Shown piece by piece: positions 11,847 through 53,343 of a stretch of DNA of 53,460 nt. The notes under the pieces are model-generated. The model saw only the letters and a list, made by a program, of their open reading frames with translations, was not told where the DNA came from and made no database searches. Location of the stretch: contig NZ_ANMO01000040.1 of the NCBI RefSeq assembly GCF_000338295.1, positions 1 through 53,460 on the forward strand, given 5' to 3'. Position numbers and translations under genes: made by a program. Each line of letters begins with the position of its first letter. The stretch's first letter is position 1. The DNA comes from Rhodopirellula europaea 6C. GTDB taxonomy: Bacteria > Planctomycetota > Planctomycetia > Pirellulales > Pirellulaceae.

Positions 11847-12851
11847 ATGAGCACCACCGTCGATGCGATGCGAGCCGACGCGGAACAATTTCGTCAGCGA
11901 TACGTCGCGATCCGTGAAATGATTGGTCGCGTGATCGTGGGTCACGATGACATCGTCAGCGGCGTTTTGACATCGATGCTTTGCGGTGGCCACTGTTTGC
12001 TCGAAGGCGTTCCGGGGCTCGGCAAAACGATGCTGGTCCGCACGTTGGCTGAAGTGCTGGACCTGCAATTCAATCGCATTCAGTTCACCCCCGACCTCAT
12101 GCCCGCGGACATTTTGGGCACCAACATGGTCGTCGAAGACGAATCCGGTCGCCGCAAGTTTGAGTTTCAAAAGGGGCCCGTCTTCACGCAGATCCTGCTC
12201 GCCGACGAAATCAACCGAGCGACCCCGAAGACTCAATCGGCCATGCTGGAAACGATGCAAGAAGGCACCGTGACCGCGGGGGGGCATCGCTACACGCTCG
12301 ACCAACCGTTCTTTGTCTTGGCCACTCAAAACCCGATTGAGCAGGAAGGCACCTACCCGCTTCCTGAAGCCCAGATGGACCGCTTCCTGTTCAAACTGGT
12401 GGTCGGCTACAGCAACCGGGATGAGCTGGCGACGATCGTCGACCGCACGACTCGCGGCGAACGTCCAGAGATCGAAAAGGTCATGGACGGCGAAGAAATT
12501 CAACGCTGGCAAAAACTTGTTCGTGAAGTCATCCTCGCCCCGCACGTCCAGGATTACTTGGTGCGTCTGACCATGGCGACGCACCCCGATGGCCCGTACA
12601 GCGTTCCGATCACCAATGAGTATGTCCGCTGGGGCAGCAGCCCGCGTGGTGCCCAAACGCTCGCTTTGACCGCGAAAGTCCAGGCTTTGTTGGACGGACG
12701 GTTCAACGTTTCCTTCGAAGATATCCGGCGGATGTTCCTGCCCGCGATGCGTCACCGCGTGCTGCTGAACTTCGAAGCTCAGGCCGAGGGCATCGACACC
12801 GACCGCGTTTTGCTGGAAATTCTAGAGAAGGTTCCAGAAAAGGGCGATTGA
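11847..12851 (+). CDS. MoxR-family AAA+ ATPase
   Basis: A 334-aa cytoplasmic ATPase of typical MoxR length. Motifs: Walker A GVPGLGKTML (about 54-63), the MoxR signature FTPDLMPADILGTNMV, Walker B LLADEINRATPKTQSAMLE, and sensor-1/arginine-finger region TQNPIEQEGTYPLPEAQMDR. The C-terminal lid covers about 235-334. MoxR proteins act as chaperones that help assemble metal-containing or secreted complexes, usually with von Willebrand factor A partners. No VWA or DUF58 gene lies beside it here, which makes it an orphan locally. The sulfatase is 11 bases upstream and the zinc-ribbon protein 73 bases downstream, so a transcription unit is possible. Confidence 0.94.
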   Translation: MSTTVDAMRADAEQFRQRYVAIREMIGRVIVGHDDIVSGVLTSMLCGGHCLLEGVPGLGKTMLVRTLAEVLDLQFNRIQFTPDLMPADILGTNMVVEDESGRRKFEFQKGPVFTQILLADEINRATPKTQSAMLETMQEGTVTAGGHRYTLDQPFFVLATQNPIEQEGTYPLPEAQMDRFLFKLVVGYSNRDELATIVDRTTRGERPEIEKVMDGEEIQRWQKLVREVILAPHVQDYLVRLTMATHPDGPYSVPITNEYVRWGSSPRGAQTLALTAKVQALLDGRFNVSFEDIRRMFLPAMRHRVLLNFEAQAEGIDTDRVLLEILEKVPEKGD

Positions 12852-35986: not shown

Positions 35987-37450
35987 ATGAATATTGAGCG
36001 GGGAGGTCTAACCACTCTGCCGTCCGCCCTACGATCGCGAGTCGAATCGATGAAGACACAACAGTCAGGAGTCAACATCGATCCGCGTCAAACTTCGCTG
36101 TGTGAGACCTCCCGAACTGCTGAACATTCGCTTCCCACGGAACAAAACGGATTGGACACGCAAAGCGTTTCCGACCTGCAGACCGAGCGTGACAAGCCCG
36201 ATCCTACGCGCAAGCGTCCGCCAGCGACAAAAACAGAATTCGATCGTTCCACCACGTCGCAACGTGCGGAGGATTTGGTCAATCGCATGGTCGACGCCGA
36301 AATCCTCGATCAACCCAACCAAGACGGTCGGTACGTTGACTTTCCCAACGAGTCACACGTTCAAACCGGTCGCTCGCGAAAAGATCCGATTTCGGGCAGT
36401 TGGACAATATTCGCTCCCGGCCGTGCTCGTCGTCCTGATCAATTCAAATCTCATCGGCCAAAACCTGACGCGTCGATGGATTGCCCGTTTTGCCACGGCA
36501 ACGAAAACCTGACACCTGCCTCGGTGTGGTCAGCGAAATTGTCGGAAGACGAGGAAGCCGTTCCACAGTCTTCTGATTGGACCGTTCGAGTCGTTCCGAA
36601 CTTGTTTCCGGCTATCAAACCTGAAGGCAACACTGAGCTCAAACCCACCGCTGCCGACGACGAAGCAGAAACTCGTCTGTCGCCATTCGCTCAATCGTTG
36701 TTTGTTGAAGAGATCGCATCGGGTGGCCACGAGGTCATCATCGAAGCCGCTCGCCACACTCGCTCACTCAGCGAACTGAACTTGGCAGAGATCGCCCTCG
36801 CGTTTTCTGCTTATGCAGCCCGGATGCGTCATTGGCGGCAACAACCCGGCATCCAGTTTATCAGTCTGTTCAAAAACGTCGGCCGTGATGCCGGTGCTTC
36901 GTTGCAGCACAGCCATAGCCAACTCATCGCGTCGAACCACTTGCCGCACTCGGTTCGCGAAGTCAACAAACGCATGCGATCGCACTTCGATCGTTACGGA
37001 CGCTGTTTGCAGTGCGACGTTTTGCAGGCTGAACTGGAACGCAAAGAACGGATCGTTCATCAATCCGATTCGCTGGTCGCCTATTGCCCTCACGCCAGTC
37101 GGTTCCCATACCTGATTCGAATCACGTCCAAAATGCACGTGGGTTGTTTCGAAGACCTTTCGGTTTCGATGAACGAAGAAGTCGCCCGTTTGGTACTGCG
37201 AAGCGTTCGTTGGCTCGAAGCAATCATTCCCGGCGTCGCTTACAACATGATGCTGCACACCGGTCCTGCGGGTGACCAGCACGACAACAAAACGCACCAC
37301 TGGAGCCTTGAATTGGCACCACGAATTGGTCGTTTGGCCGGATATGAACTGAGTTCCGGTGGAATGATCAATACGGTGTACCCCGAGGCAGCCGCGGACG
37401 AATTCCGCCATCAAGCCCGACGCAGCGATCCGCGTCACGCCCTGCGATAG
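35987..37450 (+). CDS. GalT-family hexose-1-phosphate nucleotidyltransferase
   Basis: A 487-aa protein in the histidine-triad GalT family. The first about 100 residues are polar and probably disordered; ATG 36050 is an alternative start. The zinc site begins at C166-P-F-C169. HEVIIEAARHTRSL follows, and the nucleotidyl-accepting active site is H308-S-H310-S-Q312. A second CxxC (RCLQCDV) lies near residue 342. The active site HSHSQ differs from classical GalT (HPHxQ) and matches the variant seen in ADP-glucose phosphorylase. The upstream neighbour is glgA, which uses ADP-glucose, so a role in sugar-nucleotide balance is inferred. Whether it acts on UDP-galactose or ADP-glucose is not settled by sequence. 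Confidence 0.85.
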   Translation: MNIERGGLTTLPSALRSRVESMKTQQSGVNIDPRQTSLCETSRTAEHSLPTEQNGLDTQSVSDLQTERDKPDPTRKRPPATKTEFDRSTTSQRAEDLVNRMVDAEILDQPNQDGRYVDFPNESHVQTGRSRKDPISGSWTIFAPGRARRPDQFKSHRPKPDASMDCPFCHGNENLTPASVWSAKLSEDEEAVPQSSDWTVRVVPNLFPAIKPEGNTELKPTAADDEAETRLSPFAQSLFVEEIASGGHEVIIEAARHTRSLSELNLAEIALAFSAYAARMRHWRQQPGIQFISLFKNVGRDAGASLQHSHSQLIASNHLPHSVREVNKRMRSHFDRYGRCLQCDVLQAELERKERIVHQSDSLVAYCPHASRFPYLIRITSKMHVGCFEDLSVSMNEEVARLVLRSVRWLEAIIPGVAYNMMLHTGPAGDQHDNKTHHWSLELAPRIGRLAGYELSSGGMINTVYPEAAADEFRHQARRSDPRHALR

Positions 37451-40199: not shown

Positions 40200-40922
40200 A
40201 TGTTGGCGATGACTTGGACCGAACGGCTCGACTCCATCCTTGTGGGGCCCATGTGGCCTGCCACCGTTCTGGCCGCGTTGTTTCTGCTCTACGCCCTCGT
40301 CTCGATGCTGGGCATTTTTGAGTTTGGCGTCGACGCGGATGTCGATGTCGACTTGGACATCCCCGATCTAGATGCTCCGGATCTGGCGGGCGACGTCGGT
40401 GGCGATTTAGGCATGGACGCTTCCGGCGAACCCATGCACGGTGACTGGTTTGGCGGTGCGGGCGCGGCCACATTGCGGGCCATGAACCTGGACCGAGTGC
40501 CGCTGGTCGTTTGGTTTTCCGTCTTCAGTGTCCTGTTTTGGGTGATCAGCTTTTACCTGTGGTTTGGTTACGACGTGCGGCGCTACGATCCTGACTTCCT
40601 GACCAGCGGACTGCTGACGATCCGCAACGGCGTCCTGGGGATCGTCGCGACCAAAATGGCGACTTGGCCACTGCACCGAATCATGGTTCCGCCGACCGAA
40701 TTCCACGCCTCCAGCCTGGTTGGCGGAACGGCCACCATCGAAACCCGGCAAGCCGACGAATCGTTCGGTCGTGCACGTTTTGCGACTGATGCGGCCCCTC
40801 TGCTGATTTCCGTCCGAACCGGTGGTGAAATTATCCCAAAAGGGGTACGTGTCACGGTGGTGAACTATGATCAAAACAGCAAAACCTACCTGGTGCGGGC
40901 TGATTCTTCGGCTTCGACGTGA
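40200..40922 (+). CDS. YqiJ/NfeD-like membrane protein with OB-fold tail (flotillin partner)
   Basis: A 240-aa protein. A membrane helix (about 16-37, VLAALFLLYALVSMLGIF) is followed by an Asp-rich acidic loop (VDVDLDIPDLDAPDL), another helix (about 105-125, WFSVFSVLFWVISFYLWF) and possibly a third (GLLTIRNGVLGIVATKM region). The C-terminal 75 residues are beta-rich (SLVGGTATIETRQADESFG, ending ITLVNYD-like VVNYDQNSKTYLVRA), as in the OB fold of YqiJ/NfeD. In E. coli yqiJ sits beside flotillin yqiK, and the same arrangement is seen here with the flotillin gene about 105 bases downstream. Confidence 0.86.
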   Translation: MLAMTWTERLDSILVGPMWPATVLAALFLLYALVSMLGIFEFGVDADVDVDLDIPDLDAPDLAGDVGGDLGMDASGEPMHGDWFGGAGAATLRAMNLDRVPLVVWFSVFSVLFWVISFYLWFGYDVRRYDPDFLTSGLLTIRNGVLGIVATKMATWPLHRIMVPPTEFHASSLVGGTATIETRQADESFGRARFATDAAPLLISVRTGGEIIPKGVRVTVVNYDQNSKTYLVRADSSAST

Positions 40923-41027
40923 TTCGGCGCGCCCCGCTGGCTGATATTCCACGCCTGATCAACAGGCAAAATGTTTTCGGGATTCGTCATCGAATCATCC
41001 CGCAGTCAATCACTCGAAAGAACACTC

Positions 41028-43088
41028 ATGCTGGTTGCTCTCATCACAGATAGCCTCGCTGCGGACGTGGCGATCATTTTGGTCGGGGGACTCTTCCTCG
41101 TCGGCATCGTTGTCGCGCTCTTCTACAAGAGCTACTACGTTAAAGTCGGTCCGGATCGCGCCATCGTGAAATCGGGTTCCGGCGGTGTCAAAGCCGTGAC
41201 CGGCGAAGGCATGCTGATCATCCCGCTGATTCAGCAATACGAGTTCATGGACCTCACGCTGAAAAGCTTTGAGATCCATCGCCAGGGCAGCGAAGGTTTG
41301 ATCTGCCGCGACAACATCCGCGCCGACATCAAAGTCGCGTTCTTTGTGCGTGTCGACAAAAGCCCCGAGGAAATGAAAGAGGTCGCTCAGTCGATCGGTG
41401 CCAAACGCTGTAGCGAACTGGAAACGCTGCGTGAACTGTTCGATGCGAAATTCAGCGAAGCACTGAAAACGGTCGGCAAGCAATTTGACTTCGTCGATCT
41501 GTATGACCAACGCGACAAGTTCAAAGAGGAGATCCTGAAAGTCATCGGCACCGACCTGAACGGTTACCGGCTCGACGACGCCGCGATCGATTACCTGGAA
41601 CAAACACCGTTGGACATGCTCAGTCCAACCAACATCCTCGACGCCGAGGGCATCAAGAAGATCACCGAACTGACCTCGATGGAAAAGGTCAAGGAAAACC
41701 AGTTCACCCGCGACAAAGAAAAGACGCTGAAGAAGCAGGACGTCGAAGCCGAAGAAACGATTCTCGAACTGGAACGTCAACGCGTCGAAGCGGTCGAAAA
41801 ACAACAACGCGAAATCGCGGAAATCACTTCGCGTGAACAAGCCTCGGCTGCGAAAGTCCGCGAAGAGCAACGATTGGAATCCGAACGAGCCCGCATCCAA
41901 ACTGAAGAAGAAATCGGGATCGCCGAAGAGAACAAATCTCGTCAAATCCTGGTCGCGATGCGGAACAAGGAAAAGACGGACGCAGTCGAACTGGAACGCG
42001 TCAATCGCGATCGTGACTTGGAAGCCACCGAACGCATGCGTGTCGTGGGCGTCGCCGATGTCGAAAAAGAAAAGGCGATCGAAGTCGAGAAACGCAACAT
42101 TCAAGAAGTGATTCGCGAACGCGTCGCTGTCGAACGTGCCGTGGTCGAAGAACAAGAACGAATCAAGGACACCGAAGAACACGCCAAGGCCGAACGTCAA
42201 AAAACGGTCCAAATCACCGCCGCTCAAATGAAGGCGGAAGAAGAACTGATCCGTCAAACCAAGCTGGCTCAAGCCGAGAAGGAAAGCAGCGAGTTGCTGG
42301 CTGAAAAAGTCCGCATCGAAGCCGAAGCCAAACGCGACGCTGCGGAAAAAGAAACCGCCGCGACGAAAATGCTGGCCGAAGCCGAAGCCGCCCAAGCCGC
42401 TGCCGCTGGTTTGGCCGAAGCTCAAGTCCAAGAGGCCAAAGCCGTCTCACTGGAAAAAGAAGGCATGGCCGAAGCCAAGGTTTCTCGCGAGAAATACACG
42501 GCCGAAGCGACCGGTATCACCGAGAAAGCCGAAGCGATGAAGAAGCTGGACGGCGTCGGCAAAGAACACGAAGAGTTCAAACTCAAACTCGAGAAAGAGA
42601 AGTTCGTCGAAGTTGCTGCGATCGAAGCTCAACGCGGAATTGCCGAAAGCCAAGCCGGTGTCATCGGCGAAGCCTTGCAAGCCGCTCGAATCGACATCGT
42701 CGGTGGCGACGGAGAATTCTTCGAACAGATCACTTCCGCAGTCAAAGGCGGCAAAGCGATCGACCGATTTGTCTACAACAGCCAAGTCGCGACGGACGTC
42801 AAGAACACGTTCTTCGACGGCAACGCGGACTACTTCCGCGATCAAGTCAAAGAGCTGATCTCACAGTTCGGATTGGACACCGACGGCGTGAAAGACCTTT
42901 CCATCGCGGCATTGATTGCCAAGTTGATGGGCATGTCCAGCACCGACGATGTTCGAACGCAGTTGACCAGCCTGCTCAGCATGGCTGGGACCGCCAACGT
43001 GGCCGACCAAAAGGTCAGTCGCTTGCTCACGTCCGAGCCAAACACCGTTCCAGCGAAGAAAGTCTCGCCTAACGGGAAGAAGGCCTGA
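41028..43088 (+). CDS. Flotillin-like SPFH protein (YqiK family)
   Basis: From ATG 41028 the protein is 686 aa; ATG 40971 would add 19 residues and cannot be ruled out. A membrane anchor lies near residues 12-33 (VAIILVGGLFLVGIVVALFY), then an SPFH domain (about 35-210) with VKVGPDRAIVKSGSGG, LKSFEIHRQGSEGLICRDN and ADIKVAFFVRVDKSP. Residues about 220-570 are a very long Glu/Ala/Lys coiled coil (for example EAEETILELERQRVEAVE), typical of flotillins, which form oligomeric membrane scaffolds. The C-terminal region contains ITSAVKGGKAIDRFVYNS. Only two bases separate it from the giant ATPase gene. Confidence 0.95.
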   Translation: MLVALITDSLAADVAIILVGGLFLVGIVVALFYKSYYVKVGPDRAIVKSGSGGVKAVTGEGMLIIPLIQQYEFMDLTLKSFEIHRQGSEGLICRDNIRADIKVAFFVRVDKSPEEMKEVAQSIGAKRCSELETLRELFDAKFSEALKTVGKQFDFVDLYDQRDKFKEEILKVIGTDLNGYRLDDAAIDYLEQTPLDMLSPTNILDAEGIKKITELTSMEKVKENQFTRDKEKTLKKQDVEAEETILELERQRVEAVEKQQREIAEITSREQASAAKVREEQRLESERARIQTEEEIGIAEENKSRQILVAMRNKEKTDAVELERVNRDRDLEATERMRVVGVADVEKEKAIEVEKRNIQEVIRERVAVERAVVEEQERIKDTEEHAKAERQKTVQITAAQMKAEEELIRQTKLAQAEKESSELLAEKVRIEAEAKRDAAEKETAATKMLAEAEAAQAAAAGLAEAQVQEAKAVSLEKEGMAEAKVSREKYTAEATGITEKAEAMKKLDGVGKEHEEFKLKLEKEKFVEVAAIEAQRGIAESQAGVIGEALQAARIDIVGGDGEFFEQITSAVKGGKAIDRFVYNSQVATDVKNTFFDGNADYFRDQVKELISQFGLDTDGVKDLSIAALIAKLMGMSSTDDVRTQLTSLLSMAGTANVADQKVSRLLTSEPNTVPAKKVSPNGKKA

Positions 43089-43090
43089 TC

Positions 43091-46000
43091 GTGGCTGAGG
43101 ACGCTTCCACCGAAGCGACTTCGCTGCCTGGTTCCGCTGGTGTTAGTGGATCGGATGCAGGGATTTCCCAGGACGCCGCCTCGCAGTTGTCGGGCGGCAC
43201 CTACGAAGTCCTTCGCAACCGGCTTCGCACCGCCGCCGGCGATCTTCGCGATCGACTCGCCAAGCTGAACGAAGACCGCGGCGAAGTCTTCGGGAACATC
43301 GAAACGCGATTGATTGCGACGCAGCGGGTCTCGACCGAACACAACTGCGTCCCACGAGACATTGTCTCGATTGGTGACGAGTTCCTGTTTGGATACAACG
43401 TTCAGTTCGGATTGAAAACCGAAATCGAACTGGCCGACGTGTTCTCGATCTACCGCATGGAATCCACCGAGTTCCATGAACGACCGCTCGAGCGAATCAT
43501 GGACGATCGCTTCGTCAGTGATTTTCACGAGCTGTACCGGTTCTACAAAGACACCACGTTCCTGCGGTTCTTTGTGTCCGGCCCGATCTTGCACATGGTG
43601 TTCCAAGTCGGCAAAACCGCTCGCGATATCAAATCGTTCAAATGGCGTCGCAGCCCCGAAGGCCTGCAATACGTCGACAATCGCAGCGACCACGAAGTCC
43701 GCTTGCCCGACCAGCATGAATTTCGCTGGCAGAGAACCACGCGGGACATGCATCACTACGGTGAGCACCCGCATATCTCCATCGATGACCGCGTGTTCGT
43801 CGAAACGGTCGGTGGTGACCTGACGATCAAAGTCGAAAACAACACCAGCGTCGGCGAAGGCATCTACGCCGAACCGGTCGACAACTTCGACCAAAAACTC
43901 GACGACGCGGAGATTCATTACGCAATCGTCGGTCACTTGGTCTTGCTCAAGATCAAACCGTATCAAGAGAACCAATTTCGCTACATCATCTTCAACGGCA
44001 AGATCAACCAAGCGATCCGTTTGGACGAGATCCAGCACGCCTGCGTGATGCTGCCTGGCGACCAAGGTCTGATCTTCCCCGGCGGTTATTACTTGCAATC
44101 CGGCGAGTTCAAACGCTTTGACCACGGACTGGTCGACATGCGTTACGAGCGAACAATCAACTCGCCCAATGGCGAAGACAGCTTGTATCTATTTTCCCAC
44201 GTAGAAGACGGAACGTACATCCAACTACGCTACAACCAAATCCGCCAATCGGTCGATACGCCGCTCGTGTGCCACGGTCAAACGTTCTTCGAAGCCGGCG
44301 AAATGGTCTGTTTCAAAGGCCAAGACACACCGCAAAAGCACCATGCGATTCAGTTGTGGCAAACGCCGTTCACCAGCGAAGACTACCTGCCCGAGAACCA
44401 GACCGATTCGTTGCTGTTCAAGATCGGCAACAAAGATCTGGTTCGCGGGATGGCCGAATGCAGCGAACTGCTGCAACTGATCGAGAAGGACGACAGCTAC
44501 AACGATTTGTACATCGACCTGTCCAAGAAGTCCGGCGATGTCCTCGACAGCTACTTCTGGATCGACAACGAAGAGACACATCACCTCGCTGAACCACTTC
44601 GCAAAATTCGCGAAACGGCGGGAGCGGCGATCGAAGAATACGAGAAAGTCGTTCGTGTTCGCGAAGCCACGGCCAAGCAAACTCGCCAGGTCCAATCGGA
44701 CACGAACACGACGCTGAAAGAGATCGAGCGTTCGCGGTTCACTTCGATCGACCAGTTCGTCGCTTCGCTGGCGCAACTGCGAGTCCAGAGAGGTCGTGCG
44801 ATCGCTCTGCGAGAACTTCGGTTCGTCGACCTTTCCGTCGTGGAAGAGTTGGAATCGGTCACCGCCGAGCAATCAGATCGTCTCAGCCGTCGCTGCGTCG
44901 AATTCCTGCTCGGCGAAGATGCCCTGCAACCTTATCGCGACCGAGTTGCCGAAGCCGAAAACCGCGTTCCCGAAATCAAAGGCGTCGCTCAAGCCAAGGA
45001 ACTCGAGTCGGAGATCGACCAAACCGCTGCCGATTTGGAATTGCTGACCGAAACAGTGAGCAACCTGCAGATCGACGACGCGACTCAGCGGACGACCATC
45101 ATCGATGCGATCGGCGACGTCTTCGCGACCGTCAATCGCGTTCGCAGTGCGCTGAAAAATCGCAAGCAAGAACTGATCGGCGTCGAAGGCCGAGCCGAAT
45201 TTGCATCGCAGTTGAAACTGCTCGAACAAACCACCACCGGATACCTCGACGTCTGCGACACGCCCGCTCGCTGCGACGAGTACCTGACGAAAGTCATGGT
45301 GCAACTCGAAGAACTCGAAGGTCGCTTCGCCGAATTCGACGAGTTCATCGAAACGCTCGCCTCTCGTCGGGAAGACGTTTACGGCGCTTTCGAATCGCGA
45401 AAAGTTGCGTTGGTTGAAAAACGCAATCGACGAGCCGAGGCTCTCAGTTCCGCCGCCGAACGGATCCTCAGCGGGATCCAGCATCGCGTTTCGAACATGG
45501 AATCGATCGACCAAATCGCAGCGTACTTCGCTGGCGACTTGATGGTCGGCAAGATCCGTAGCCTGATCGAAGAGCTCGATGAACTCGGCGATGCCGTTCG
45601 CGTCGGTGATTTACAAAGCCGCCTCAAAACACTTCGCGAAGACGCGCTGCGAGGCCTCAAAGATCGCCAAGATCTCTACGAAGACGGTGGCGATGTCATC
45701 CGACTGGGCGAACGAAAATTCGCGGTCAACACTCAGCCTCTGGACCTGACGACGGTCCTGCGAAGCGACGAACTGTGCCTGCACCTGACTGGCACGCAGT
45801 ACTTCGATCCCATCGACGACGAGCGACTGATCGCCGCCCGCGACATTTGGAATCAATCGCTGATCAGCGAGAACTCCGACGTCTACCGAGCCGAATTCCT
45901 CGCGATGGACTTGTTCGAATCCGGGCAAGCGGAATCGATTCAAGAGTTGGAAACGTTGAATGCGGCTTGGGTCGCCGAACGCATGGCCGGCCGTTTCGAT

Positions 46001-48445
46001 GAAGGCTATGCCAAAGGGGTTCACGATGTCGACACCGCGATCATCTTGCGAGGTTTGATTGACCTAGATCGGTCCATTGGGCTGCTGCGTCACGCTCCAT
46101 CACTTCGCACCGCATCCCAGCTTTGGTGGCAATGCTTCCTCGACACCAAACAACGCACCAAAATGAAGAATTGGATCGCGGGCTTTGCCAAGCTCGCGAT
46201 GGCGTTCCCTCAAGCTCAACCTGCCGTCGAATTCCGTCAACACTTGACTGAACTAGCTGCCGAACATCAATCCGAATGGATTGGACTGTTCGAAAAAGTG
46301 ATCACGCCGGAACGGATCGCAGACTACCTGTTTGAACAACTGACGAGTACCCCCGACAAGGTCGCCATCAGCGGCCATGCAAACACGTTGCACGATGACT
46401 TCCTTCGCTCGCTTCCCGAGTCGGATCAAAAACGCTGGGTCCTCGGCGGGCTGAAACCCAACACAGCCTCTCCGGTTCACACCTTCGTGCTGGCTCGCAA
46501 CTGGGCCGACGCGTTTCTCAACAAACGGGCGAACGACGACAGCCATGAAACCGGTGACTCACCGCATTGGTACCGAGACGAATTGGCTTGGCTGATTTTC
46601 CAATCCGCCATGGATGCCAAAAAAACAACCACGACGGCTCGCCCCACCAACGAAGTCATCGACATCCCCGTCGCGAAACGCCTGAAGGGGTTGGTTGGCA
46701 GCCATGCCCGAATCGAACGTGGCGAGATGCCGCTGCACTATCACGAATACATCACGCGACTGCGTGGCTACCGCGAAAATATGGTGCCGCGATTCCGCTC
46801 GCTTCACCAAGCCAAAACCGAGTGCGTCGAGTCCGCTCGCGAATCGATGCGTTTGGATGAATTCAAACCTCGCGTCCTCAGCAGTTTCGTTCGCAACCGA
46901 TTGCTCGACGAAGTTTACCTGCCGCTGATCGGCGACAACCTCGCCAAACAAATGGGCACGGTCGGCGAAGACAAACGCACCGACCGAATGGGATTGCTGC
47001 TGCTGATCTCGCCTCCCGGCTACGGCAAAACGACGTTGATGGAATACATCGCCAGCCGACTGGGTCTGGTGTTCATGAAAATCAACGGCCCCGCGATCGG
47101 GCACGGTGTGACGTCGTTGGATCCAGCGGAAGCCCCCAATGCCGCGGCCCGCGAAGAAGTCATGCGTTTGAACTTGGCGCTCGAGATGGGCGACAACGTG
47201 ATGTTGTACCTGGATGACATCCAACACACGCACCCGGAATTGCTGCAGAAGTTCATCTCCTTGTGCGATGCCACTCGAAAAATCGAAGGGGTTCGAAACG
47301 GAAAGACGCGAACGTACGACCTGCGTGGCCGGCGAGTTGCGGTGGTCATGGCGGGCAACCCGTACACCGAATCGGGCGATCGTTTTCAAATCCCCGACAT
47401 GCTTTCCAACCGCGCCGACGTCTACAACTTGGGCGAGATCATCGGCGAATCGGCCGATGCGTTCGAGATGAGTTACCTCGAGAACTGCTTGACCAGCAAC
47501 GTGACCTTGGCACCGCTTTCCAACGCGTCGCCATCGGACGCTCGAGCGATCATCGCCGCGGCGGGACGGGATTCTGTCGAAGGCATCGAACTGGAAGCCA
47601 ATTTCAGCTTGGACCAAATTCGGGACATGTTCGAAGTCACCCGCAAATTACTGCGAGTCCGCGATGTCGTGCTGCGAGTCAACCGCGCCTACATCCGCTC
47701 GGCCGCCCAAGCCGACGAGTACCGGACCGAGCCGCCGTTCAAGCTGCAGGGCAGTTATCGGAACATGAACCGGATCGCCGAACGGGTCGCTCCGGTGATG
47801 AACGATGCCGAACTGCAATCGCTGATCATCAGCAACTACGAACAAGACGCTCAAACGCTGACGACGGACAACGAAGCCAACGTCCTGAAGTTCAAAGAAC
47901 TGATGGGCATCCTGACGCCGGAAGAGAAACAACGTTGGGACGCGATCAAGTACGCGTTTGTGGAAAGCGTCCGGATGGCGGGCATGGACGGCGAAGATCA
48001 GGCCGCTCAAGTCCTCCGGCAACTCGCATCGATGCGAGATGGTCTGGAATCGATCCGGCAAGTCATCGCCAAAGCCATCGCGATGGAAGATCACTCGGCG
48101 GAAGAACGCATGGATTCGCGGGTCGACACGCTGCGACAGACGTTGCTGTCGATGGGCGAATTGATGTCGGGCCGTTTGGAATCCACCGCGAATCAGCTCG
48201 AAGCGATTTCTCGGCAACAAGCCGCCTCACCGCCCGACCAAAAGATCCTGGTTCAACACAAAGTCCCACGCGTGATCGCGGAATTGGTCAAAGGCCAATT
48301 CCACCTGATGCAAGAATGGATGCGTCCGCTGCTGGAAGAATCAATCGACAACAGTCGCGACCTGGGCCGCTTGAAGCAGCAAATGGACCTGATGCTGAAG
48401 ACTTTTCGCGATGTGGAAGATTCGTTCCAACCACCCGGTGAATGA
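43091..48445 (+). CDS. Giant AAA+ ATPase of the flotillin cluster (1784 aa)
   Basis: The start is GTG 43091, two bases after the flotillin stop. Residues about 50-480 are an alpha/beta region with a beta-rich core (VSIGDEFLFGYNVQFGLKTE; TINSPNGEDSLYLFSHVEDG). Residues about 490-900 alternate coiled coils with short linkers. A helical region follows to about 1250. The AAA+ core has Walker A P1308-P-G-Y-G-K-T1314, Walker B MLYLDD (Asp1375-Asp1376) and VAVVMAGNPYTESGDRF as sensor 1. A last coiled coil (about 1660-1780) closes the protein. Relatives in actinobacteria are often annotated as DNA repair ATPases, a label without clear support here. Its tight coupling to flotillin suggests a membrane-scaffold-linked remodelling machine. 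Confidence 0.9.
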   Translation: MAEDASTEATSLPGSAGVSGSDAGISQDAASQLSGGTYEVLRNRLRTAAGDLRDRLAKLNEDRGEVFGNIETRLIATQRVSTEHNCVPRDIVSIGDEFLFGYNVQFGLKTEIELADVFSIYRMESTEFHERPLERIMDDRFVSDFHELYRFYKDTTFLRFFVSGPILHMVFQVGKTARDIKSFKWRRSPEGLQYVDNRSDHEVRLPDQHEFRWQRTTRDMHHYGEHPHISIDDRVFVETVGGDLTIKVENNTSVGEGIYAEPVDNFDQKLDDAEIHYAIVGHLVLLKIKPYQENQFRYIIFNGKINQAIRLDEIQHACVMLPGDQGLIFPGGYYLQSGEFKRFDHGLVDMRYERTINSPNGEDSLYLFSHVEDGTYIQLRYNQIRQSVDTPLVCHGQTFFEAGEMVCFKGQDTPQKHHAIQLWQTPFTSEDYLPENQTDSLLFKIGNKDLVRGMAECSELLQLIEKDDSYNDLYIDLSKKSGDVLDSYFWIDNEETHHLAEPLRKIRETAGAAIEEYEKVVRVREATAKQTRQVQSDTNTTLKEIERSRFTSIDQFVASLAQLRVQRGRAIALRELRFVDLSVVEELESVTAEQSDRLSRRCVEFLLGEDALQPYRDRVAEAENRVPEIKGVAQAKELESEIDQTAADLELLTETVSNLQIDDATQRTTIIDAIGDVFATVNRVRSALKNRKQELIGVEGRAEFASQLKLLEQTTTGYLDVCDTPARCDEYLTKVMVQLEELEGRFAEFDEFIETLASRREDVYGAFESRKVALVEKRNRRAEALSSAAERILSGIQHRVSNMESIDQIAAYFAGDLMVGKIRSLIEELDELGDAVRVGDLQSRLKTLREDALRGLKDRQDLYEDGGDVIRLGERKFAVNTQPLDLTTVLRSDELCLHLTGTQYFDPIDDERLIAARDIWNQSLISENSDVYRAEFLAMDLFESGQAESIQELETLNAAWVAERMAGRFDEGYAKGVHDVDTAIILRGLIDLDRSIGLLRHAPSLRTASQLWWQCFLDTKQRTKMKNWIAGFAKLAMAFPQAQPAVEFRQHLTELAAEHQSEWIGLFEKVITPERIADYLFEQLTSTPDKVAISGHANTLHDDFLRSLPESDQKRWVLGGLKPNTASPVHTFVLARNWADAFLNKRANDDSHETGDSPHWYRDELAWLIFQSAMDAKKTTTTARPTNEVIDIPVAKRLKGLVGSHARIERGEMPLHYHEYITRLRGYRENMVPRFRSLHQAKTECVESARESMRLDEFKPRVLSSFVRNRLLDEVYLPLIGDNLAKQMGTVGEDKRTDRMGLLLLISPPGYGKTTLMEYIASRLGLVFMKINGPAIGHGVTSLDPAEAPNAAAREEVMRLNLALEMGDNVMLYLDDIQHTHPELLQKFISLCDATRKIEGVRNGKTRTYDLRGRRVAVVMAGNPYTESGDRFQIPDMLSNRADVYNLGEIIGESADAFEMSYLENCLTSNVTLAPLSNASPSDARAIIAAAGRDSVEGIELEANFSLDQIRDMFEVTRKLLRVRDVVLRVNRAYIRSAAQADEYRTEPPFKLQGSYRNMNRIAERVAPVMNDAELQSLIISNYEQDAQTLTTDNEANVLKFKELMGILTPEEKQRWDAIKYAFVESVRMAGMDGEDQAAQVLRQLASMRDGLESIRQVIAKAIAMEDHSAEERMDSRVDTLRQTLLSMGELMSGRLESTANQLEAISRQQAASPPDQKILVQHKVPRVIAELVKGQFHLMQEWMRPLLEESIDNSRDLGRLKQQMDLMLKTFRDVEDSFQPPGE

Positions 48446-51794: not shown

Positions 51795-53111
51795 CTAGCG
51801 TTGATCGACAGGAACCACGTCACGCTGCGTTGCGCCGGTGTAGATCTGACGCGGACGATTGATTCGCGAAGCCGGGTTGGCGTGCATCTCACGCCAGTGA
51901 GCCAACCAGCCGGGCAAGCGACCAATCGCGAACAGAACCGTGAACATCTGGACCGGAATGCCGAGCGCTCGGTAGATCACGCCGGAATAAAAGTCGACGT
52001 TGGGATACAACTTCCGCTCGATAAAGTATTCATCCTTGAGCGCGACTTCTTCCAGCTTCTGGGCAACTTCGAACAATGGATCATCCAGGTTCAACTTTGC
52101 CAGCAACTTGTCGCAGCTCGCTCGGATGATGGTTGCTCGTGGATCCGAGTTTTTGTAAACGCGGTGACCAAAACCCATGATGCGGAAGTCGTTGGATTTG
52201 TCCTTCGCCATGTCGACGTATTTCTTCACGTCGCCACCATCGGCCGCGATTCGTTCGAGCATGTTCACGCAGGCTTCATTGGCACCGCCGTGAAGCGGTC
52301 CCCACAAAGCACCGATGCCGGCGGAGATGGACGCGAACAAGTTGGCGTTGCTGCTGCCGACCATGCGAACCGTGGACGTGCTGCAATTTTGCTCGTGATC
52401 AGCGTGCACGATGAACAGCAAGTTCAGTGCTTCCGCAAAATCGGGATCGACCAAGTAATCCGAGGTTGGCGTTGCGAACATCATGTACAAGAAGTTCTCG
52501 CAGTAGTCCAACTCGTTCTTGGGGTACATGAACGGTTGGCCCATCGATTTCTTGTAGCTGTACGCCGCGATCGTGGGCAATTTCGCGATCAAGCGATACA
52601 GAGAAATCTCGACCTGACGCGGATCATTCAGATCCATTGAATCTTGGTAGAACGTTGACAGCGCTCCGACAACGCTGCTGAGGATCGCCATCGGGTGAGC
52701 ATCACGTGGGAAGCCGTTGTAGAACGATCGCATATCCTCGTGGATCATCGTGTGTTCACGAATCCCTGAACGGAACGTTTCAATCTCTTCCGCGTTTGGC
52801 AGATCGCCAAAGATCAAAAGGTAGGCGACTTCGACGAAGTCACAGCTTTTTGCCAGTTCTTCGATTGGATACCCGCGGTAACGCAGAATCCCTTTTTCGC
52901 CATCCAAGAACGTGATTGCACTGCGAGTGCTGCCCGTGTTGACGAAGCCGTCGTCCAAGGTGATCACGCCGGTGTCAGCTCGTAGACGACTGACATCGAT
53001 CGCTTTTTCACCTTCGGAACCTTCGACCAATGGCAACTCAAGGTTGGTATCCCCGAATTGGACTCGGACGGTGTCGGCTCGTTGAATTTCCAAACTGGAG
53101 GAGGAGCTCAT
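51795..53111 (-). CDS. gltA: Citrate synthase
   Basis: A 438-aa cytoplasmic enzyme that condenses acetyl-CoA with oxaloacetate, first step of the TCA cycle. The start is ATG 53111; the frame runs to 53270 but the extension is not protein-like. Visible motifs: ILRYRGYPIEELAKS, FPRDAHPMAILSSVVGAL, the catalytic His in VHADHEQNCSTSTVR, HGGANEACV with the second active-site His, and GFGHRVYKNSDPRA with substrate-binding residues, followed by the catalytic Asp in YPNVDFYSG. Length and motif order fit the bacterial type. Oxaloacetate could come from the PEPCK-like protein encoded about 34 kb away. Confidence 0.96.
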   Translation of the reverse strand: MSSSSSLEIQRADTVRVQFGDTNLELPLVEGSEGEKAIDVSRLRADTGVITLDDGFVNTGSTRSAITFLDGEKGILRYRGYPIEELAKSCDFVEVAYLLIFGDLPNAEEIETFRSGIREHTMIHEDMRSFYNGFPRDAHPMAILSSVVGALSTFYQDSMDLNDPRQVEISLYRLIAKLPTIAAYSYKKSMGQPFMYPKNELDYCENFLYMMFATPTSDYLVDPDFAEALNLLFIVHADHEQNCSTSTVRMVGSSNANLFASISAGIGALWGPLHGGANEACVNMLERIAADGGDVKKYVDMAKDKSNDFRIMGFGHRVYKNSDPRATIIRASCDKLLAKLNLDDPLFEVAQKLEEVALKDEYFIERKLYPNVDFYSGVIYRALGIPVQMFTVLFAIGRLPGWLAHWREMHANPASRINRPRQIYTGATQRDVVPVDQR

Positions 53112-53343
53112 GGGCGATCTGTAGATACAATTTACGAGTTGGCGGGACGTCTTGGGGGTGACAGACGTAGTGTAGCCCTGCGTCATCCAAGCGACAATCA
53201 GCGGGACCCCACATCCGATGGCCTGAGAGAGCGATTTTGGACTTTGATGTACCCACCCGACCGATTTCACATATTCCTAACAAGTTCTCCGACCGGGAAA
53301 TTTCGTCGCGGAAACACCAACGCGAAACCACCCCGGCTCCCGT
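53112..53343. other. Upstream region of citrate synthase, no gene seen
   Basis: About 230 bases without a credible frame on either strand. It should hold the citrate synthase promoter. No hairpin or binding site was recognised before the repeat that begins at 53344. Confidence 0.5.

What the first reader, a model, noticed from the sequence alone, without database searches (positions are those of the whole stretch)
40200..48445. Three-gene flotillin cluster ending in a 1784-aa AAA+ ATPase
A YqiJ/NfeD-like membrane protein, a flotillin with a very long coiled coil and a giant coiled-coil AAA+ ATPase lie in one direction; only two bases separate the last two, and the first gene has a strong ribosome-binding site. 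YqiJ-YqiK pairing is known. A giant ATPase fused tightly to it suggests an ATP-driven machine mounted on a membrane scaffold. The usual label 'DNA repair ATPase' fits poorly with this setting. This is the strongest candidate here for an undescribed system.
Basis: partly seen in the sequence, partly recalled or inferred. Interest (0 to 1): 0.72.

Follow-up and report, generated by a model that had tools for sequence, protein, structure and literature searches.

The report
Flotillin-coupled giant AAA+ ATPase operon
Three neighbouring genes encode a small membrane protein, a flotillin scaffold and a giant ATP-driven motor that nearly always occur together in the bacteria examined; this gene set has already been described by comparative genomics, but its function appears untested.

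The parts
40200..40922 (+). YqiJ/NfeD-like membrane protein: two TM-like segments by hydropathy and an acidic D-rich linker
   Evidence: ORF; TM-like residues 22-40 and 100-118; 24 of 35 family members match YqiJ_N at E<=0.1, window copy 0.072; alignment
41028..43088 (+). Long flotillin (SPFH): N-terminal TM-like segment, Band_7, long coiled coil, conserved C-terminal part; the ORF opens at 40971, likely start 41028
   Evidence: Band_7 E 7.1e-14, E 1.5e-13; TM-like residues 33-51 of the 705-aa ORF; start inferred from relatives; alignment
43091..48445 (+). 1784-aa AAA+ ATPase
   Evidence: ORF; Pfam
43241..44557 (+). DUF3686 domain (residues 51-489); propeller-like in the model at about residues 69-426
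44591..45670 (+). Helical region (residues 501-860) with DUF7902 (610-694)
   Evidence: PF25472 E 5.4e-29; helical in the model
46877..47911 (+). AAA+ core, MoxR-like fold (residues about 1263-1607): Walker A PPGYGKTT, Walker B LDD, sensor-1 N1423, R1441, R1557

Best explanation
A membrane-mounted AAA+ remodelling machine of the PSP-linked flotillin kind. The flotillin (SPFH) anchors in the cytoplasmic membrane through its N-terminal segment and oligomerises into a scaffold or cage (inferred from the SPFH family). The YqiJ/NfeD-like protein sits beside it and helps assembly (inferred from YqiJ-YqiK pairing). The ATPase has a propeller that most likely binds the flotillin or a client, a long helical stalk, and a MoxR-like AAA+ ring that uses ATP to remodel or pull on client proteins at the membrane; no protease domain was found, so the outcome is remodelling rather than destruction. 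In Bacteroidota and on one Pseudomonas plasmid the client or effector is probably the ESCRT-III-like PspA encoded upstream in the same cluster. In this planctomycete no PspA was found, so here the machine acts on the flotillin scaffold itself or on other envelope proteins. Shown: gene order, co-occurrence, domains, conserved ATPase motifs. Predicted: folds. Inferred: docking, client, envelope-stress role.
For: Flotillin upstream on the same strand in 85 of 86 loci with at least 2 kb of room, gap under 1.5 kb in 82 (the 86 include the window and two loci that duplicate others). 8 of 8 ATPase-bearing Bacteroidota genomes of 296 and 11 of 11 plasmid-collection regions. In 294 genomes of the window's phylum, ATPase in 39 and strong flotillin (best match 630 bits or more) in 41; the two without ATPase sit at contig ends. 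Pairwise distances of flotillin and ATPase correlate at r 0.93 over the window plus 63 loci, YqiJ-ATPase 0.80 (species phylogeny not corrected, no control gene). CesT/Tir-PspA directly upstream of YqiJ-flotillin-ATPase in 7 of 8 Bacteroidota and on a Hymenobacter plasmid; YjfI-PspA further upstream on pQBR103. Motif residues identical in 92 of 92. MoxR-like fold, propeller-like fold. Published: B. subtilis SPFH protein YdjI is needed to bring PspA to the membrane (PMC8581546, abstract and discussion).
Against: No experiment. No PspA found in the host genome nor in 9 other ATPase-bearing genomes of 39, so the PSP link is not general. Exceptions to tight linkage: L036 (truncated ATPase, no flotillin in 3.2 kb), three loci with 1.9-5.4 kb between flotillin and ATPase, and L047, left out of the 86, with no flotillin in its 1.86 kb of upstream sequence. 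YqiJ is missing upstream of the flotillin in 5 of 78 loci with room, though those five genomes carry a YqiJ gene elsewhere. Models are of moderate confidence (pTM 0.48-0.51) and no complex was modelled. Foldseek ranks RuvB chains first for the AAA+ part, and Pfam's MoxR model AAA_3 does not match. In P. aeruginosa nine SPFH proteins are reported as largely dispensable in the laboratory (PMC13086221, passages).
Confidence: 0.6

Rival explanations
1. A strict PSP/ESCRT-III system: the ATPase is the disassembly motor for PspA, as Vps4 is for Snf7, and the flotillin and YqiJ are its membrane receptor.
For: CesT/Tir-PspA in the same cluster in 7 of 8 Bacteroidota; PspA over cut-off in 27 of 39 ATPase-bearing against 48 of 255 other genomes of the window's phylum (Fisher p 5.9e-10, not corrected for phylogeny); Ravi et al. 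suggest ESCRT-like roles.
Against: No PspA in the 99.93% complete host genome at E<=1e-3 with PF04012, whose controls ring in 9 of 14 genomes, nor with a profile of operon PspAs at E<=1, a search without a positive control; PspA inside the fetched stretch in only 2 of 38 other ATPase-bearing genomes of the phylum; the AAA+ core is closer to NorQ/CbbQ than to the p97 or proteasome ATPases listed.
Confidence: 0.2
2. A DNA-repair or DNA-processing ATPase, as its database name says, whose flotillin neighbour only tethers it to the membrane.
For: Pfam's own description of PF12458; partial RuvB_N and NCBIfam RuvB matches below cut-off; RuvB chains top the Foldseek list (E 2.3e-5).
Against: No DNA-binding or repair domain above cut-off apart from that title; N-terminal half modelled as a propeller; the constant partner is a membrane scaffold protein; in the second look NorQ/CbbQ lead and RuvB is not among the 50 rows shown.
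Confidence: 0.07
3. An anti-phage or conflict system using a membrane-bound AAA+ sensor.
For: Large multi-domain NTPase with a propeller, a layout seen in conflict systems (recalled); some copies on plasmids.
Against: Only two weak PADLOC matches confined to the P-loop region (E 0.004); no match in 50,697 phage records; none confirmed in viral contigs with the two patterns used; the scanned neighbours are ordinary (ThuA, MFS, Sua5, TPR).
Confidence: 0.06

Closest known systems
PSP-linked CesT/Tir-PspA / flotillin / YqiJ / AAA+ operons (Ravi et al. 2024, PMC11237479)
   [quoted passage not shown] YqiJ/YuaF. The window is their 'abbreviated operon' form.
   Different: No CesT/Tir-PspA in the window and no PspA found in the genome. 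'MoxR', 'DUF3686' and 'PF12458' do not occur in that paper's main text; its supplements were not read.
E. coli YqiJ-YqiK and B. subtilis YuaF-YuaG, SPFH2 operons (PMC2636767, passages)
   Same: NfeD-like gene in one operon with a flotillin-type SPFH gene.
   Different: 'ATPase' does not occur in that paper's text; here a giant ATPase is the constant third member.
HflK/C-FtsH (PMC12048511, start of abstract in a search listing only)
   Same: SPFH scaffold working with an AAA+ protein at the inner membrane (analogy).
   Different: Here the ATPase shows no TM-like segment, has a MoxR-like core and no protease domain match.
MoxR AAA+ ATPases NorQ (with NorD) and CbbQ
   Same: Fold of the AAA+ core.
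   Different: No VWA domain in the seven window proteins scanned; no Pfam AAA_3 match; embedded in a 1784-aa protein.
B. subtilis PspA-YdjGHI (PMC8581546, abstract and discussion)
   Same: SPFH protein hard-wired to an envelope-stress system.
   Different: No AAA+ partner is described there; its membrane partners are YdjG and YdjH.

Membership tests
SPFH / flotillin | Band_7 (SPFH) domain | tested here: met
   E 7.1e-14, 52.7 bits against cut-off 23.6. The whole-length scan gave none, and 8 of 40 full-length relatives match
SPFH / flotillin | N-terminal membrane anchor | tested here: met
   Hydropathy peak at residues 33-51; hydropathy only
SPFH / flotillin | Oligomeric cage or microdomain scaffold | not testable with these tools
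   Needs microscopy or cryo-EM
YqiJ / NfeD-like | YqiJ_N sequence family | tested here: inconclusive
   Window E 0.072, below cut-off; 24 of 35 relatives match at E<=0.1, best 6.9e-6
YqiJ / NfeD-like | C-terminal OB-fold | tested here: inconclusive
   NfeD in 4 of 35 and YqiJ_OB in 1 of 35 at E<=0.1, neither in the window copy
DUF3686 (PF12458) | Full-length domain match | tested here: met
   651 bits against cut-off 25, all 448 positions
Ravi et al. [quoted passage not shown]
   the propeller rests on a model and YqiJ on position plus weak match
Ravi et al. flotillin/AAA+/YqiJ operon | CesT/Tir-PspA dyad (long form only) | tested here: not met
   Not among the scanned neighbours and no PspA found in the genome; the abbreviated form does not need it
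MoxR AAA+ | Fold of the AAA+ core | tested here: met
MoxR AAA+ | Pfam MoxR family AAA_3 | tested here: not met
   Not listed at E<=1 for the AAA+ piece; AAA_5 just above cut-off. Hence 'MoxR-like', not filed as a MoxR member
MoxR AAA+ | VWA-domain partner gene | tested here: not met
   No VWA in the seven window proteins scanned
HflKC-FtsH-type system | AAA+ protein with protease domain | tested here: not met
   No peptidase family listed for the ATPase
DNA-repair ATPase | DNA-binding or repair domain | tested here: not met
   None above cut-off; only the title of PF12458

The most novel reading that the evidence does not exclude
In planctomycetes this is a PspA-independent machine: a flotillin scaffold carrying a giant MoxR-like AAA+ motor that remodels membrane proteins or the scaffold itself, a non-proteolytic counterpart of HflKC-FtsH. 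The PspA-containing operons of Bacteroidota would be a lineage-specific specialisation.
Probability: 0.35. Interest if true: 0.62.

Novelty: new member of a known kind. Interest (0 to 1): 0.4.

Why it matters
Bacterial flotillins have few defined biochemical partners (general knowledge). A motor that is almost never found without its flotillin gives a direct handle on what such a scaffold does, and would correct a misleading database name ('DNA repair ATPase'). The apparent absence of PspA in this host makes it a good place to separate flotillin-motor function from the phage-shock response.

Tried and rejected
DNA-repair reading: set aside for want of any such domain beyond the family title. 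Defence reading: weak P-loop matches only in PADLOC, nothing in phages, nothing confirmed in viral contigs. The whole-protein Pfam scan of the flotillin found no Band_7 and phmmer against PDB gave one chance hit, E 0.81; scanning the N-terminal part alone resolved it. The one PDB hit of the flotillin profile, QmcA (E 3e-4), is over the coiled coil and was not used as proof. In the rows shown, sequence searches of the ATPase against PDB matched stretches around the P-loop; the N-terminal profile hit only TEX12 coiled coils (E 0.014). A profile comparison with MoxR proteins of the own genome had only two of them as template (probability 75, E 2.5e-5) and was not relied on. The hairpin after the ATPase stop is not better than shuffles (z -1.15, 29 of 200); promoter-like sites 1 (minus strand) against 2.0 expected, terminator-like 17 against 13.6. 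Window neighbours ThuA, MFS, Sua5, TPR and the 35987-37450 ORF (GalT-like, recalled name) have no tblastn match at E<=1e-10 in 116 related loci; the 51795-53270 ORF (citrate synthase, recalled name) hits 5 of 116 at 30-32% identity. So nothing suggests that they belong to the unit, though many loci have short flanks. Families not seen are not thereby excluded.

Rows left out before the count of 86: 12 of 98 loci with under 2 kb upstream of the ATPase: L008, L009, L012, L016, L021, L031, L035, L040, L047, L057, L126, L127. L012 shows the end of a flotillin; L047 shows none in 1.86 kb. One plasmid-collection record of 12 (H5, a second Proteus) was not fetched. The first motif count chose added sequences by a Walker A pattern and so lost 2 of 18; the recount without that filter is.

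Literature searches. 'DUF3686' is in 0 held papers and 'DNA repair ATPase' together with 'flotillin' in 0; I saw no experimental study of the trio in these listings, but most subscription papers are not held.

Full report
WHAT IS THERE. Three + strand genes stand in a row: 40200-40922, 40971-43088 and 43091-48445. The first has AGGAG ending 8 bases before its ATG; two bases separate the last two. Relatives suggest that the flotillin starts at ATG 41028 rather than 40971.

DOMAINS. The ATPase matches DUF3686 over the model's whole length (residues 51-489, E 8.7e-196), DUF7902 (610-694) and the AAA+ clan. Scanned alone, the AAA+ region passes the AAA_5 cut-off over most of the model (positions 2-125 of 139, 25.6 bits, cut-off 22), whereas PF00004, also over its cut-off, covers only 38 of 131 positions. 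The flotillin's Band_7 domain is hidden in the full-length scan but clear in the N-terminal piece and in the genome search. The first gene is YqiJ-like by position and through its relatives (24 of 35 match YqiJ_N at E <= 0.1); the window copy alone falls below cut-off.

LINKAGE. I took 57 loci from one scan of genome contigs, 40 stretches from 38 other ATPase-bearing genomes found among 294 of the window's phylum, and the window: 98 loci, two of them duplicating others by exact match. The phylum is Planctomycetota by the names of those duplicates (L006, L052). In 86 loci the contig reaches at least 2 kb upstream of the ATPase frame; 85 have the flotillin there on the same strand, 82 of them within 1.5 kb. 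In L032, L048 and L056 (Bacteroidota by their record names) 1.9-5.4 kb lies between. L036 has a truncated ATPase and no flotillin in 3.2 kb; L047, under the 2 kb limit, has none in 1.86 kb. YqiJ is upstream in 73 of 78 loci with room; four of the five without it are Rhodopirellula and close genera, the fifth is L056, and these five genomes each carry a YqiJ gene elsewhere. In the other direction, the strong flotillin (best match 630 bits or more) occurs in 41 of 294 genomes, 39 of them with the ATPase; in the other two the contigs end 248 and 39 bases after the flotillin frame. In the phylum of Saprospira (Bacteroidota) 8 of 296 genomes have the ATPase, all 8 with flotillin and YqiJ, and 7 of 8 also with CesT/Tir and PspA directly upstream. 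Twelve plasmid-collection records have it; of the 11 fetched, 11 have the flotillin and 10 a YqiJ-like gene. They are Hymenobacter, Nonomuraea, two Streptomyces, Proteus, two Deinococcus, Pseudomonas pQBR103, Halomonas, Photobacterium and Vibrio.

PSPA. PF04012 is over cut-off in 27 of 39 ATPase-bearing genomes of the window's phylum and in 48 of 255 others (Fisher p 5.9e-10); kinship was not corrected for, so this is suggestive only. The window's own genome (99.93% complete) has none at E <= 1e-3 and none with a profile of operon PspAs at E <= 1 (that search had no positive control). Nine other ATPase-bearing genomes also lack it. PspA lies within the fetched stretch in 2 of the 38 other genomes (G142, G027). 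So the flotillin-ATPase pair is the core and PspA is optional.

LITERATURE. Ravi et al. 2024 (PMC11237479; section 19 read whole, passages) describe this operon in long and abbreviated forms and propose chaperone-like assembly of membrane-linked complexes. 'MoxR', 'DUF3686' and 'PF12458' do not occur in its main text; its supplements were not read. Scholz et al. 2021 (PMC8581546; abstract and discussion) show an SPFH protein needed for PspA membrane recruitment in B. subtilis. The SPFH2-NfeD operon link is from PMC2636767 (passages). Passages only were seen of PMC9239133, PMC13086221, PMC10948618 and PMC10936438.

VERDICT. It is a member of a published kind for which I found no experiment.

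Noticed in passing
L135-L145 (11 of the 14 genomes concerned): A second, more divergent YqiJ + flotillin pair in 14 genomes of the window's phylum, none with the DUF3686 ATPase; all 11 fetched stretches show both genes, and in 6 of these genomes a PspA match lies on the same contig close by, one of them below cut-off.
   Followed up: partly
window 40329-40409 (YqiJ-like protein, residues 44-70): Acidic linker with a repeated D-x-D pattern after the first TM-like segment; similar D-rich stretches are seen in many relatives although the rest of the protein is poorly conserved.
   Followed up: no
window 11847-12851: A canonical MoxR (AAA_3) gene in the same window, one of 13 over cut-off in this genome; not linked to the flotillin unit.
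   Followed up: no
L090:3426-5141: An unidentified ORF between a PspA-like gene and the YqiJ-flotillin-ATPase unit in one genome of the phylum.
   Followed up: no
L036:1-3272: The ATPase match begins at residue 459 with no flotillin upstream: broken gene or misassembly.
   Followed up: partly
L047:1-1858: ATPase with no flotillin in the 1.86 kb upstream (Saprospiraceae MAG); relatives of this group have other DNA between the two genes.
   Followed up: no
L002, L003, L005, L007: Rhodopirellula and close genera keep flotillin-ATPase together but carry YqiJ elsewhere in the genome.
   Followed up: partly
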